This document shows positions 8,881 through 57,688 of a stretch of DNA of 64,000 bases, piece by piece; within the stretch, counting starts at the first letter, position 1, and each line of letters opens with the position of its first letter. Source of the stretch: Herbinix sp. (GTDB taxonomy: Bacteria > Bacillota > Clostridia > Lachnospirales > Lachnospiraceae). The notes beneath the pieces are model-generated. The model worked only from the letters and a program-made list of their open reading frames with translations. It searched no databases and was not told the DNA's origin. The stretch is taken from NCBI GenBank assembly GCA_029240245.1, contig JARBTJ010000004.1, positions 1 to 64,000 on the forward strand, read 5' to 3'. A program made the translations under genes and the position numbers.

Positions 8881-9150
8881 AAAAAGCCCCAAGTATAATA
8901 AATACTTGAGACGAATAAAAATCCGCGGTACCACTCAAATTGAACAAGTCCACTCTTTCATATACAAATCATATATGCCATTCTAATAACGGTGATGGTT
9001 TCCGTCAACGCCTACTGTTAGTTCGGGTTGCCCTCAAAAGCCCATTCAGCCAAATACTTCATATCGCATTCCACCAAACTGCGACTCTCTGTAATGAAAT
9101 AATAAAGCTTACTCTTCTTTCTCAACGGTTTCACTTATTGATGAGTAAAT
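8881..9150 (-). promoter_or_regulatory. T-box leader (putative Trp specifier) with terminator
   Basis: Minus strand contains AGAGAG, GGTGGAATGCG distal loop, putative specifier GAA-TGG (TGG at 9042-9044), T-box AGTGGTACCGCGG (8923-8935) and terminator ctcaagtatttattatacttggggcttttttt. Confidence 0.9.
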
Positions 9151-43532: not shown

Positions 43533-45476
43533 TTAATAATAACTATAGGAAAAGTTGGCAGTAGTATCCAGATAGGATAAGTCAGCATCCTGAAGTAATA
43601 CAGCATCTTCGTTAAATTCAAAGGTCCAGGTAATGTAATCATGAGGTGGAATTTCAGCTCCCTCTACGGCTGTAAAGAATCCGTCGGCATAGATATCAAT
43701 CCCGTTACCAATGATTATTTCAAGATCAACAATATTAAAAACGGAGGTATCCTTTCCGTTGTAAATGTACATAACCGCAATCAGTTTACCACCGTCATAA
43801 TAAACTTCCTGCGGTGAAAACATCAGGTCATCCTCCGTCGTCGTATAGTTTTCACTGTAGAAATAATCGGTACCGTAAAAACTGCCCTCGTAGGTATCAT
43901 CATAACTATCCTCATAAGTGCCATGATAAATACTTTCATAGGTACCTTCATTCATATCTTCATAGGCGCCATCATTAATATCTTCATAGGTACCTTCATA
44001 GATTCCTTCATAGACACCATCATAATTATAGGTACCTTCATAGACACCATCATAATTATAGGTACCTTCATAGACACCATCATAATCATAAATATCTTCA
44101 GTAGCTTCATAAACGCCTTCGATGGAATCGGCACCTTCCTCCCACAAATCATCATCAAAATCGGTGATTAACTCATCTGTAGAATCCGTGCTCTGTGCAT
44201 ATTCCGACCCAATCATGTCCTCTTCCATTCCGGAGACATCCATACCCTCTGTGGCCTGGGTCACTGCATCCGTATCCTCCTGTACCAAATAGCTGGATTT
44301 ATCCAAGGTGTCCAACTCATCAATGGCCAGCTTTATCTTCGCAGTTTCCAAAGCAAAGATTCCGTCACTCACCTCAAGAGTATAATTTAAACCATAGTCA
44401 TCCAGGGAAAATACCACGGTATATTGTCCCTGATTTCTGGGTTCTATAGAAGTAAAGAATAAGTCCATTCCGGTTAATTCGGAATTTGCCGCATAAACGG
44501 TACCATCCTCTGCAATCACCTTTAACATGGCGCTGTCAACGATAGCCTCTTCCTTTCCGGAATTTTTGACGGTTATATCAATTGTTAAAAACATCCCCTC
44601 TGTGGTGTACTCGTTATAATCATCAATAATCGTTTTGGATGCTAATGCCGAATCAATCGAATAAGTAATGTTACCAAGCCTGATATCTTCGCCTGTTTGG
44701 TAGAAGGCATCCTTTGAATTATTCATACCGGTTAATAGAAATGAGAACGCTAATACCACTACCGCACCCACAATGCATGCTGGAATCCATAGAAACCATT
44801 TACACTTTTTCGTGCATTGATCCGGTTTATTAAGACTTATGATACCCGCTGTTAAAAGCAATATAAACGGAATGATATAACCGGCATATATGGAGATTAA
44901 TCCGCTGACAGCAGCAATTATCATAAGTAAACCGGCTATCTTACCCTTTTTATGTACCAGTACTGAACCGACAATACCAATGACGGAAAAGATAAGCGCT
45001 GCGATTCCCAGTCCACCCAAACCGTTATCGTTTACTCCGATGACATCTAATATTTCACCAAAAAAAATTACGGCGATGGAGGAGGAAACACCTAAAATAC
45101 CACCGATTAGGCCCAATACAAATTCAGCGGTCCGCTTCATCTTTTTTGGCTTCACAGTATTCATATACAAGGGGGGGTGAACCTGAACAAAAGGCGCTTG
45201 TGCCTGGAGTTGACTATGTAGAGCCTGTACTTGTGCATGATTATATGGCGCATGCGGCTGCTGTTGACTATATGACGCTTGTGCCTGCGGTTGACTTAAT
45301 GGCGCTTGTGCCTGCTGTTGACTTAATGGTGCTTGTGCCTGCTGTTCTCCCGGATTAAACCACAGCAGTGGCTGTCCGGGCTGCATATTAGTTGAATTTG
45401 ATGCCTGACTCCCTCCACATTCCGGGCAGAAATTACCATCCTTTTTTATTTCTTTCCCACAATGAATACAATACAT
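43533..45476 (-). CDS. Zinc-ribbon, Gln/Ala-rich, multi-TM protein with DUF4352-like domain and Tyr/Gly/Glu/Asp repeats
   Basis: MYCIHCGKEIKKDGNFCPECGG; QQAQAPLSQ repeats; YDGVYEGTYN repeats; Ig-like C-terminal region. Confidence 0.72.
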   Translation of the reverse strand: MYCIHCGKEIKKDGNFCPECGGSQASNSTNMQPGQPLLWFNPGEQQAQAPLSQQQAQAPLSQPQAQASYSQQQPHAPYNHAQVQALHSQLQAQAPFVQVHPPLYMNTVKPKKMKRTAEFVLGLIGGILGVSSSIAVIFFGEILDVIGVNDNGLGGLGIAALIFSVIGIVGSVLVHKKGKIAGLLMIIAAVSGLISIYAGYIIPFILLLTAGIISLNKPDQCTKKCKWFLWIPACIVGAVVVLAFSFLLTGMNNSKDAFYQTGEDIRLGNITYSIDSALASKTIIDDYNEYTTEGMFLTIDITVKNSGKEEAIVDSAMLKVIAEDGTVYAANSELTGMDLFFTSIEPRNQGQYTVVFSLDDYGLNYTLEVSDGIFALETAKIKLAIDELDTLDKSSYLVQEDTDAVTQATEGMDVSGMEEDMIGSEYAQSTDSTDELITDFDDDLWEEGADSIEGVYEATEDIYDYDGVYEGTYNYDGVYEGTYNYDGVYEGIYEGTYEDINDGAYEDMNEGTYESIYHGTYEDSYDDTYEGSFYGTDYFYSENYTTTEDDLMFSPQEVYYDGGKLIAVMYIYNGKDTSVFNIVDLEIIIGNGIDIYADGFFTAVEGAEIPPHDYITWTFEFNEDAVLLQDADLSYLDTTANFSYSYY

Positions 45477-45540
45477 TCAATTATCCTCCTCTAGTTAGGG
45501 CTTTTCACTATAACAATCTTCTATGTAATTAAAAATAAAG

Positions 45541-45799
45541 CATTGATAGCATAACAATCTTCTATTAATAAAAATTATAGCATTGATAGTATAACAGTCT
45601 ACTATTTATGAAAAATTATAACATTGATAGTATAACAAACTTCTATTTATGAAAAAATATAGCATTGATAGTATAACCATCTACTATTTATGAAAAATTA
45701 TAGCATTGATAGTATAACCATCCACTATTTATGAAAAATTATAGCATTGATAGTATAACCATCCACTATTTATGAAAAATTATAGCATTGATAGTATAA
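45541..45799. repeat. 41-bp tandem repeat array, about 6.3 copies
   Basis: Unit cattgatagtataaccatccactatttatgaaaaattatag; last full copies identical, first copies diverged. Confidence 0.95.
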
Positions 45800-45947
45800 A
45801 ATAACAATTGACGAATTTTATATAAATGTTAGTATAGTGTTAATATAGTTTCAAAACTTCAATATCTAAGCATTATTTTCTGCTTGCAAAACCTTGAAAA
45901 TAAGTATATAATTTGTAAAAATGAAATCTAAGCAATTGAATATAAAA

Positions 45948-46070
45948 GATTAAAGTATAAAAATCACCTTCGGTGCTATCCGGCTACCATATATATAGTT
46001 ATTGCAAGCTTGCTTGCATATCAATCTATTGTAACTGGAAATGTGCGTGGCACCTTTTGATACTTAAATC
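45948..46070. mobile_element. MITE-like palindromic element, copy 1 (degenerate)
   Basis: Same architecture as copies 2 and 3 (caccttcggtg; gtgcgtggcac; gcaagcttgc centre); flanked by direct repeat atataaaa (45940-45947, 46071-46078). Confidence 0.75.
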
Positions 46071-46085
46071 ATATAAAATGAGCGA

Positions 46086-46300
46086 TGATAAAAGCTGCGA
46101 TTTATAAATTTCTTCAGAGAGCCGATGGTTGGTGTGAATCGGTGAAAGGATAAATCTTTCCACTTTTTGAGCTGTCGGTGATAAACCGAAAGGCCGGTGA
46201 CCTTTATCCTACCAGATCGAGTGGCTGTTTACGAAGCAGCAATTTGGGTGGCAACGCGGATTCCTTCCGTCCCTTATGTTTTAGGGGACAGAAGGAATTT
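46086..46300 (+). promoter_or_regulatory. T-box leader upstream of serS
   Basis: AGAGAGCC, GGTTGGTGTGAATC, T-box GGGTGGCAACGCGG, terminator attccttccgtccctta-tgtt-ttaggggacagaaggaattttttattt. Confidence 0.92.
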
Positions 46301-46315
46301 TTTATTTGCATGTAT

Positions 46316-46436
46316 GGTTAAAGGTGTTAAAAGCACCTTCGGTGCTTTCATGCTACAATATATTGATATGCAAGCTTGCTTCCATATCAGTATATTGTAG
46401 CATGAAAAGTGCGTAGCACCTTTTGACACTTTAACC
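46316..46436. mobile_element. MITE-like palindromic element, copy 2
   Basis: GGTTAAAG ... CTTTAACC ends, near full-length palindrome, 6-bp direct repeat atgtat at 46310-46315 and 46437-46442. Confidence 0.87.
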
Positions 46437-46472
46437 ATGTATCTTATAATTTAATTTAATGGAGGAATTACT

Positions 46473-47750
46473 ATGTTGGATTTAAAGTTTGTCAGAGAAA
46501 ACCCTGAAATCGTAAAACAGAATATTCGCAACAAATTTCAGGATCATAAGCTAAACCTGGTGGATGAAGTAATCGCACTGGATGTGGAAAGCAGAAATGC
46601 AAAGCAGGAGGCCGATACCTTAAGATCTGAACGGAATAAGATTTCTAAGCAGATCGGCGGATTTATGGCACAGGGAAAAAAAGAAGAAGCGGAAGAAATG
46701 AAGAAGAAAGTTTCCGAGGAATCTGAACGTTTGACAATACTGGAAGCAAAGGAATCAGAACTGGAAGAAAAAATCAAAAAGATTATGATGACACTTCCAA
46801 ACATCATTGATCCCAGCGTACCCATCGGCAAGGATGACAGCGAGAATGTGGAAGTACAGCGTTACGGCGATCCGTTTGTTCCGGATTTCGAGATTCCCTA
46901 CCATACAGAAATCATGGAAAAGTTTAACGGAATTGACTTAGATAGTGCCAGAAAAGTCGCAGGTAATGGTTTTTATTATCTGATGGGAGATATCGCAAGA
47001 CTTCACTCTGCTGTGATATCCTATGCAAGAGATTTTATGATTAACCGAGGCTTTACGTATTGCATACCTCCCTTCATGATCCGCAGTGACGTTGTTACCG
47101 GTGTTATGAGCTTTGCAGAAATGGAAGCTATGATGTATAAAATCGAAGGGGAAGATCTATTTTTAATCGGAACCAGCGAACATTCCATGATTGGTAAATA
47201 CATTGATACCATTTTACAGGAGACCTCCCTGCCCCAGACTTTGACCAGTTATTCTCCTTGCTTTCGAAAGGAAAAAGGTGCACATGGTCTTGAGGAAAGA
47301 GGTGTGTACCGAATTCATCAGTTTGAAAAACAGGAAATGATTGTTGTATGTAAGCCGGAAGACAGCATGATGTGGTTTGATAAGCTTTGGCAAAACACCG
47401 TTGATTTATTCTGTTCCTTAGATATTCCGGTTAGAACTTTAGAATGCTGTTCTGGCGATTTAGCCGACTTAAAGGTAAAATCCATAGATGTGGAAGCATG
47501 GTCCCCGAGACAGAAGAAATATTTTGAGGTAGGAAGCTGCTCTAACTTAGGCGATGCTCAGGCAAGACGTTTAAAGATCCGTGTTGTCGGAGAAGGTGGT
47601 AAATATTTCGCCCATACGTTAAACAATACGGTGGTAGCACCTCCGAGAATGTTGATTGCTTTCCTGGAGAACAATTTAAATGCAGACGGTTCGGTTAATA
47701 TTCCTGTAGCACTTCAACCTTATATGGGCGGTATGACAGTTATTAAATAA
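46473..47750 (+). CDS. serS: Seryl-tRNA synthetase
   Basis: MLDLKFVRENPEIVKQNI; LIGTSEHSMIGKY; CFRKEKGAHGLEERGVYRIHQFEKQEM. Confidence 0.97.
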   Translation: MLDLKFVRENPEIVKQNIRNKFQDHKLNLVDEVIALDVESRNAKQEADTLRSERNKISKQIGGFMAQGKKEEAEEMKKKVSEESERLTILEAKESELEEKIKKIMMTLPNIIDPSVPIGKDDSENVEVQRYGDPFVPDFEIPYHTEIMEKFNGIDLDSARKVAGNGFYYLMGDIARLHSAVISYARDFMINRGFTYCIPPFMIRSDVVTGVMSFAEMEAMMYKIEGEDLFLIGTSEHSMIGKYIDTILQETSLPQTLTSYSPCFRKEKGAHGLEERGVYRIHQFEKQEMIVVCKPEDSMMWFDKLWQNTVDLFCSLDIPVRTLECCSGDLADLKVKSIDVEAWSPRQKKYFEVGSCSNLGDAQARRLKIRVVGEGGKYFAHTLNNTVVAPPRMLIAFLENNLNADGSVNIPVALQPYMGGMTVIK

Positions 47751-49559: not shown

Positions 49560-50738
49560 ATGATAGGAATGTTTCAACGGCCGCAGGATGTTAACCGGAT
49601 TCTGGCCCCCTATAACAGGGATTTAGGCGAATATTACAGAGAACTTCAGGGCTATGGAATTCAAAGGTTTATAGCAAGGCGTATTTTTGCAGGCATTGTT
49701 ACTTATGTATTACAAAACGAGGAAGACTATTCTGGTAATATGGAACAGCGGACGAGCCGACTTTTGGAAGCTTATTTAAGGGATAATAATGTTGTTCTTT
49801 TGACCTTAAGAGGAGTCGGCATCCCGAACAATCGGATTAACCGGATGATCCAGGACATAATTCGTATGGTACTGAGAAATATTGGTGAGGAAGAACCAGG
49901 TCCCGCTCCAGGTCCCGCTCCCGGCCCAGGCTGGAGCAATTGGGAGGACTTAGGTGGAATATTAACTTCTGCACCCGCAGTATCCTCCTGGCAGCCTAAC
50001 CGCCTGGATGTATTTGCAAGAGGACAGAATCAGGCTCTTTGGCATATTTACTGGGATGGCTCCAGATGGAGCAACTGGCAGGACTTAGGTGGTTCATTAA
50101 CCTCCGCTCCGGCAGCCGTTTCGTGGGGACGGAATCGGATTGATGTCTTCGGTGTCGGACAAAATCAAGCTCTTTGGCATAAATACTGGGATAATAATCG
50201 CTGGAGCGACTGGGAAGATCTTGGCGGTGCTTTAATTTCCGGACCTGCGGTTGCATCCTGGCAAAGTAATCGGCTTGATGTATTCGGCGTTGGACAAAAT
50301 CAAGCCTTATGGCATATTTACTGGAACGGAACAAGATGGAGTGATTGGCAGAACTTAGGCGGTGTTTTAACCTCCACCCCGGCGGCCGTTTCCTGGGGCC
50401 CTGACCGGATAGATGTGTTCGGAAGAGGCCAAAACCAGAGTTTATGGCATATATGGTGGGATGGCAGACAATGGAGTGCATGGGAAGATCTTGGTGGCGG
50501 TATTATTACATCCGGACCGGCAGCTGCCTCTACCGGTGCAAACCGTTTGGAAATCTTCGCACGTGGCCAACAAAACCAGTTAGTTTTAAGAACCTGGAAC
50601 GGTTCTAGATGGAGCGGATGGGAAAGTCTCGGAGGTGTAATTACCACAGAGCCTGCTGCAGTCTCCTGGGGAGGAAACCGTCTGGATGTATTTGCTCGAG
50701 GCCAAAACAATCATCTTTGGCATATCTGGAGACCATAG
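49560..50738 (+). CDS. PLL/DUF346-like beta-propeller lectin with novel N-terminal domain
   Basis: About six ~45-aa repeats of the form WS.WEDLGG.LTS.PAV.SW...RLDVF.RGQNQALWHIYWDG; PGPAPGPAPGPG linker. Confidence 0.8.
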   Translation: MIGMFQRPQDVNRILAPYNRDLGEYYRELQGYGIQRFIARRIFAGIVTYVLQNEEDYSGNMEQRTSRLLEAYLRDNNVVLLTLRGVGIPNNRINRMIQDIIRMVLRNIGEEEPGPAPGPAPGPGWSNWEDLGGILTSAPAVSSWQPNRLDVFARGQNQALWHIYWDGSRWSNWQDLGGSLTSAPAAVSWGRNRIDVFGVGQNQALWHKYWDNNRWSDWEDLGGALISGPAVASWQSNRLDVFGVGQNQALWHIYWNGTRWSDWQNLGGVLTSTPAAVSWGPDRIDVFGRGQNQSLWHIWWDGRQWSAWEDLGGGIITSGPAAASTGANRLEIFARGQQNQLVLRTWNGSRWSGWESLGGVITTEPAAVSWGGNRLDVFARGQNNHLWHIWRP

Positions 50739-57000: not shown

Positions 57001-57155
57001 GTTTTGGAACTTTAGTTAAATATTACAATTTGTACTTGCAATTTATTTATGGATAGGTTATAATTAGTAATAGTTACTGTTATCAATAAATTCATTAGAG
57101 GTAGAAACTGCTCTTAAGTAATATTTTTCAATTTTATCCGTAGACTATAATTATT

Positions 57156-57275
57156 GGTTAAAGTGTCAAAAGGTGCTACGCACTTTTCATGCTACAATAT
57201 AATGATATGAAAGCTAGCTTGCATATCATTATATTGTAGCACAAAAGCACCGAAGGTGCTTTTGACACTTTAACC
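57156..57275. mobile_element. MITE-like palindromic element, copy 3 (inverted relative to copy 2)
   Basis: GGTTAAAGTGTCAAAAGGTGCTACGCAC...GCACCGAAGGTGCTTTTGACACTTTAACC; 6-bp direct repeat attatt at 57150-57155 and 57276-57281. Confidence 0.87.
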
Positions 57276-57301
57276 ATTATTTAAAATAACGAAAAGGAGA
57301 A

Positions 57302-57688
57302 ATGAATATGTCAGATGTAATTTTTTATCGTTGTGAAACCTGTGGTAATATGGTTGTTAAAATTAAAGATGGTGGTGGCACACTTGTCTGTTGCGGTGAG
57401 CCCATGACTGCTTTAGCGGCCAATACAACCGATGCTGCTCACGAAAAACACGTACCGGTGGTAACAAGTGAACCCGGTGTTATCAAGGTAACGGTTGGTT
57501 CCGTTCTTCATCCATCACTTCCGGAGCATTATATCGAATGGATCGCTCTGGTTACCGAGGACTCAATTCAAATTACTTATCTTCAACCCGGAATGGAACC
57601 GAAGGCAGAATTTGGCGGCGTGAAATCAGGCTCCGTATACGAATACTGCAACCTGCACGGATTATGGAGAGCAGATTTCGAATTCTAG
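57302..57688 (+). CDS. dfx: Desulfoferrodoxin / superoxide reductase
   Basis: FYRCETCGNMVVKIKDGGGTLVCCGEPM; HEKHVPVV; HPSLPEHYIEWI; YCNLHGLW. Confidence 0.95.
   Translation: MNMSDVIFYRCETCGNMVVKIKDGGGTLVCCGEPMTALAANTTDAAHEKHVPVVTSEPGVIKVTVGSVLHPSLPEHYIEWIALVTEDSIQITYLQPGMEPKAEFGGVKSGSVYEYCNLHGLWRADFEF

What the first reader, a model, noticed from the sequence alone, without database searches (positions are those of the whole stretch)
46259..46472. MITE-like insertion between the T-box terminator and serS
Copy 2 sits ~15 nt after the T-box terminator U-run and ~36 nt before the serS ATG, so every read-through serS transcript would carry a ~120-nt hairpin next to the RBS. This could act as a second attenuator, an RNase site or a translation modulator added to an existing riboswitch.
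Basis: partly seen in the sequence, partly recalled or inferred. Interest (0 to 1): 0.7.

Follow-up and report, generated by a model that had tools for sequence, protein, structure and literature searches.

The report
MITE between T-box and serS
A 121-bp non-coding mobile element, one of about 74 copies in this Firmicutes genome, has landed between the tRNA-sensing T-box switch and the serine-tRNA synthetase gene; its end supplies half of a perfect promoter, so serS may now be partly transcribed without consulting the switch.

Summary
A 121-bp element (46316-46436) flanked by a 6-bp duplication (ATGTAT) sits between the terminator of a T-box (Rfam, 46076-46277) and the serS ATG (46473). It belongs to a MITE family of ~74 copies in the genome (63 of ~120 bp, 11 of ~37 bp). 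33 of 50 well-bounded copies show exact 6-8 bp target duplications, against 1.4 expected. A second, older copy (45948-46070) sits between the conserved native promoter and the T-box. T-box-serS leaders of 28 related genomes lack the element.

Best reading: a MITE insertion that created a fusion promoter letting part of serS transcription bypass the T-box. The insertion is near-certain; the promoter is unproven and not a family-wide property. Fusion promoters and MITE-interrupted T-box leaders are both known.

The parts
45884..45912 (+). Native serS leader promoter TTGCAA-N17-TATAAT
   Evidence: Promoter scan; the same CTTGCAA...TATAAT layout sits before the T-box in most of the related leaders read
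45948..46070 (+). Older MITE copy (83% identical to consensus) inserted in the 5' UTR between native promoter and T-box; 8-bp repeats ATATAAAA at 45940-45947 and 46071-46078
46076..46277 (+). T-box leader of serS (RF00230)
   Evidence: T-box motif and terminator found before serS in 28 related genomes
46310..46315 (.). Target-site duplication, left copy ATGTAT
46316..46436 (+). MITE copy of the finding, 121 bp, 95.8% identical to the family consensus; inverted repeats GGTTAAAGGTGTTAAAAG and CTTTTGACACTTTAACC
46423..46428 (+). Outward -35 hexamer TTGACA inside the right inverted repeat
46437..46442 (.). Target-site duplication, right copy ATGTAT
46445..46450 (+). -10 hexamer TATAAT in host DNA, 16 bp from the TTGACA; predicted start ~46458 (inferred)
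   Evidence: 12 of 12 consensus match
46461..46465 (+). Ribosome binding site GGAGG of serS
   Evidence: Sequence
46473..47750 (+). serS, seryl-tRNA synthetase
   Evidence: named by the T-box context and SerS-like sequence of the 425-aa ORF
57155..57277 (-). Third MITE copy of the window, just upstream of the ORF at 57302

Best explanation
The feature is a recent insertion of a non-autonomous DNA transposon (MITE) into the AT-rich gap between the T-box terminator and serS. This step is shown by inverted repeats, target duplications, many copies and empty sites in relatives. Its long hairpin follows from the palindromic transposon DNA and is most likely a passenger on read-through RNA. Its main likely effect is at the DNA level. 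The outward TTGACA in its right inverted repeat lies 16 bp from a TATAAT already present in the host flank, making a fusion sigma-A promoter (inferred). Its transcript would start at about 46458, after the terminator and the hairpin and just before GGAGG. SerS would then have two inputs: the T-box-controlled native promoter at 45884-45912, and a T-box-independent basal promoter.
For: MITE: ~74 copies; exact 6-8 bp duplications in 33 of 50 well-bounded copies against a shuffled mean of 1.4 and maximum of 6; nearly all in intergenic context; 28 related T-box-serS leaders without it, whose T-box-to-ATG gap of 71-204 nt brackets the 86 nt left when the insert is taken out. Promoter: the only 12/12 match in 45450-46800. 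The three other perfect TTGACA/TATAAT pairs at 15-19 bp spacing in the window each run into an RBS and ATG. By the count of perfect -10 boxes at other distances, an element end gets one at 16-18 bp about 1% of the time. Fusion promoters from a -35 in a terminal repeat are established (PMC9330008).
Against: No transcription data. The 16-bp spacing is below the 17-bp optimum. Gene-facing ends of other copies show no excess of -10 boxes at 16-18 bp (2 of 45 against 3.5 at control distances), so promoter creation is not a family property and this case may be chance. The promoter was noticed after looking, not predicted beforehand.
Confidence: 0.5

Rival explanations
1. Neutral passenger. The MITE landed in a permissive AT-rich spacer; the T-box still controls serS, and neither the hairpin nor the promoter-like match matters.
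For: The spacer length varies widely among relatives (71-204 nt). About 18 of 74 copies lie within about 50 nt of an ORF start, so this position is ordinary. Pairing decays without strand preference. In the pneumococcal trp leader a BOX element between two T-boxes is co-transcribed and the T-boxes still appear to work (PMC3049150).
Against: A perfect 12/12 promoter at the element-host junction, correctly placed for the serS RBS, has roughly a 1% chance per element end (derived).
Confidence: 0.36
2. First reader's model. The co-transcribed hairpin acts on serS mRNA as a second attenuator, an RNase III or other processing site, or a translation modulator.
For: Very stable hairpin on all read-through RNA. 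RNase III cuts transcripts within Correia elements (PMC10969869).
Against: No U-tract after the stems. Predicted SD pairing in the full leader unchanged. No RNA-strand constraint in 63 copies: G.U 137, A.C 130. About 24 nt separate the hairpin base from the RBS.
Confidence: 0.12
3. The two copies either side of the T-box form a composite unit that moves or recombines the T-box cassette.
For: Two copies in the same orientation flank the T-box within about 370 bp.
Against: The copies differ in age (96% and 83% of consensus), each has its own target duplication, and the T-box is in its ancestral place before serS as in relatives.
Confidence: 0.02

Closest known systems
BOX element between the two T-boxes of the pneumococcal trp leader (PMC3049150)
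   Same: A MITE-like repeat inside a T-box-regulated 5' leader
   Different: BOX lies between two T-boxes and is reported as co-transcribed with T-box control apparently intact. Here the element lies after the terminator and completes a promoter match.
Correia elements of Neisseria (reviewed in PMC10969869)
   Same: Short palindromic MITE near gene starts; some carry promoters; their transcripts can be cut by RNase III
   Different: Different host phylum. Here only the -35 is in the element, and -10 boxes are not enriched near other copies. Correia sequences were not aligned here.
IS-derived fusion (hybrid) promoters, e.g. IS257, IS256, IS2 (PMC9330008)
   Same: Outward -35 in a terminal inverted repeat joined to a resident -10
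   Different: Here a MITE rather than an IS, and a housekeeping gene behind a T-box terminator rather than a resistance gene
RUP of Streptococcus pneumoniae (PMC3049150)
   Same: ~107-bp palindromic non-autonomous repeat in a Firmicute, ~110 copies
   Different: RUP shares its ends with IS630-Spn1. Here target duplications are 6-8 bp and no autonomous partner was found.

Membership tests
MITE | Short, non-coding, no transposase | tested here: met
   121 bp; consensus about 120 bp
MITE | Terminal inverted repeats shared by copies | tested here: met
   GGTTAAAGTGTCAAAAG at both ends
MITE | Target-site duplication | tested here: met
   6-8 bp in 33 of 50 copies; shuffled mean 1.4, maximum 6
MITE | Many dispersed copies and empty sites in relatives | tested here: met
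   ~74 copies; 28 relatives with T-box-serS leaders lack it
MITE | Autonomous element with the same ends | tested here: inconclusive
   No transposase between matching ends in any locus read here; the genome is 77% complete
Fusion promoter | -35 in the repeat, facing outward, with a host -10 at 16-18 bp | tested here: met
   TTGACA-N16-TATAAT
Fusion promoter | Mapped transcription start | not testable with these tools
   No transcription data
Fusion promoter | Same arrangement recurs at other gene-facing copies (not strictly defining) | tested here: not met
   2 of 45 against 3.5 at control distances
T-box riboswitch | Covariance-model match and terminator before an aminoacyl-tRNA synthetase gene | tested here: met
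   97.5 bits against a gathering score of 93; conserved before serS in relatives
Structured regulatory RNA | Pairing kept on one transcribed strand (G.U in excess of A.C, compensatory change) | tested here: not met
   G.U 137, A.C 130; two-sided changes 46 of 2987 cells; pairing falls with age
Correia, RUP, BOX families | Sequence of the family's terminal repeats | not tested
   Not aligned here

The most novel reading that the evidence does not exclude
A MITE has naturally converted a riboswitch-controlled essential gene into a dual-input gene. A fusion promoter placed downstream of the T-box terminator gives serS a T-box-independent floor of transcription, and this was kept because it helps, not merely because it was tolerated.
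Probability: 0.2. Interest if true: 0.55.

Novelty: new member of a known kind. Interest (0 to 1): 0.36.

Why it matters
If the promoter works, it is a natural example of a mobile element bypassing a tRNA-sensing switch on an essential gene, with an easy test (one 5'-end map or a short reporter). The family also offers a catalogue of ~74 insertions of different ages for asking when MITEs alter neighbouring genes and when they are tolerated. If the promoter is silent, it is an ordinary tolerated insertion.

Tried and rejected
(1) RNA-level role: tested by pairing decay and G.U/A.C balance over 63 copies and by SD/AUG accessibility; not supported. (2) Intrinsic terminator in the element: the scan found none there. 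(3) Family-wide mobile promoter: no enrichment of -10 boxes at 16-18 bp. (4) Preference for riboswitch leaders: Rfam scans of the loci around the other G000 copies, plus eight loci from relatives, found two further T-boxes, only one of them next to an element. (5) Autonomous transposase with the same ends: not found in the lone-end contigs, GTDB and viral contig hits, or relatives' loci. (6) Composite transposon carrying the T-box: rejected by separate duplications and ages. (8) The primary paper on Correia promoters is not held.

Full report
WHAT IS THERE. The window is part of an unnamed 3.78-Mb, 77%-complete genome (G000). In the window a T-box leader (46076-46277) precedes serS (46473-47750). 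Between the T-box terminator and the ATG lies a 121-bp palindromic element, 46316-46436, flanked by ATGTAT on both sides (46310-46315, 46437-46442).

A MITE FAMILY. A DNA search found about 40 copies, and a covariance model built from 24 of them extended this to 63 full-length copies. Another 11 are 36-45 bp elements that keep only the outer repeats. Ends are GGTTAAAGTGTCAAAAG / CTTTTGACACTTTAACC. Of 50 copies with two good ends and enough flank, 33 have an exact 6, 7 or 8 bp duplication flush with the ends; random pairing of flanks gives 1.4 on average and never more than 6 in 1000 trials. The commonest length is 6, with A first and T last. By a simple ORF heuristic nearly all copies lie between genes, and about 18 lie within about 50 nt of an ORF start, so the serS position is not special. 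Elements with the same ends and ~120 bp, some with an exact 6-7 bp duplication, occur in Fusibacter, Petrocella and a MAG labelled Anaerolineaceae. Congeners hold many more matches to the ends, including ~300-bp forms. No transposase with these ends was found.

TWO HITS IN ONE LEADER. Reading related leaders by eye shows a conserved native promoter, CTTGCAA-N17-TATAAT or close to it, a few tens of bases before the T-box in most of them. The window keeps it at 45884-45912. An older copy of the element (45948-46070, 83% of consensus) is inserted between that promoter and the T-box, flanked by ATATAAAA. Joining its flanks restores the layout of the relatives. The serS-proximal copy is young (95.8% of consensus). 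Of 29 related serS loci examined, 28 have a T-box motif before serS and none has the element; their T-box-to-ATG gaps are 71-204 nt, against 213 nt here and 86 nt with the insert taken out.

IS THE HAIRPIN AN RNA REGULATOR? The fold is strong (z -8.75), but a transposon palindrome gives that without selection on RNA. If one RNA strand were selected, G.U changes should exceed A.C changes. Over 63 copies they are 137 and 130, and pairing drops in step with identity to consensus, from ~98% in young copies to ~50-60% in the oldest. In the full leader the SD is equally open with and without the element (mean unpaired 0.45 and 0.47). The hairpin is not followed by a U-tract. An RNase effect is not excluded.

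THE DNA-LEVEL EFFECT. The right repeat carries TTGACA facing outward (46423-46428). Sixteen bases further, in host DNA, is TATAAT (46445-46450). It is the only 12/12 match in the scanned region. The predicted start, ~46458, leaves a 15-nt leader with GGAGG at 46461-46465. The three other perfect TTGACA/TATAAT pairs (spacing 15-19) in the 64-kb window each run into an RBS and ATG (read from sequence), so such pairs tend to be real promoters here. Against this, the ends of other copies that face genes show no excess of -10 boxes at 16-18 bp (2 of 45; control mean 3.5). The serS case is therefore a single-locus event, with roughly a 1% chance per end by the background count.

A SECOND T-BOX CASE. 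Of the other copies, one (C94:67404-67533, L131) also sits just after a T-box terminator, before a predicted methyltransferase gene (gene name from its motifs, untested). It is old (70% of consensus) and its right end no longer reads TTGACA. This shows that the position is tolerated and that bypass is not a general outcome.

KNOWN PRECEDENTS. Fusion promoters made from a -35 in a terminal repeat are well described (PMC9330008). Correia elements carry promoters and RNase III sites (PMC10969869). A BOX element lies between two T-boxes of the pneumococcal trp leader, is co-transcribed, and the T-boxes appear still to work (PMC3049150). Targeted searches of the held library for T-box, MITE or insertion-sequence bypass found no other case; the library is partial.

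VERDICT. A real, young MITE insertion in a T-box leader. The RNA-regulator reading is weak, a fusion promoter that bypasses the T-box is the most likely effect (about 0.5), and a neutral passenger is the main rival (about 0.36). Shown: insertion, family, copies, empty relatives, 12/12 match. Inferred: promoter activity, bypass, any benefit.

Noticed in passing
45948-46070: An older copy of the same element lies between the native serS promoter and the T-box, so this leader was hit twice.
   Followed up: yes
L131 1501-1630 (G000:C94:67404-67533): A second T-box, then element, then gene arrangement, before a predicted methyltransferase gene; the copy is decayed and has lost TTGACA.
   Followed up: partly
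G000:C27:2822-2861, C94:65758-65797, C103:3984-4023, C119:275-314 and others: Mini elements of ~37 bp that are just the two outer repeats with 2-3 bp between them, some with exact 6-7 bp duplications: possibly the smallest mobile form of the family.
   Followed up: partly
G009 and G012, e.g. L227, L228: Congeners carry further MITE subfamilies (~270-300 bp) with related ends (GATTTGAGTGTCAAAAG, GGTTAGGGTGTCAAAAG), pointing to a shared, unidentified transposase.
   Followed up: partly
45524-45840: About six tandem copies of a 41-bp AT-rich unit directly upstream of the serS leader region.
   Followed up: no
57155-57277: The third window copy ends about 25 nt before the ORF at 57302, which looks like desulfoferrodoxin (by eye, untested).
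   Followed up: no
43533-45476 (-): ORF with an N-terminal zinc-ribbon-like motif and a run of YDGVYEGTYN-type repeats, encoded by 30-bp DNA repeats.
   Followed up: no
8904-9134 (-): A second T-box in the window (128.8 bits).
   Followed up: no
49560-50738: ORF made largely of tandem 45-aa W-rich repeats (135-bp DNA period).
   Followed up: no
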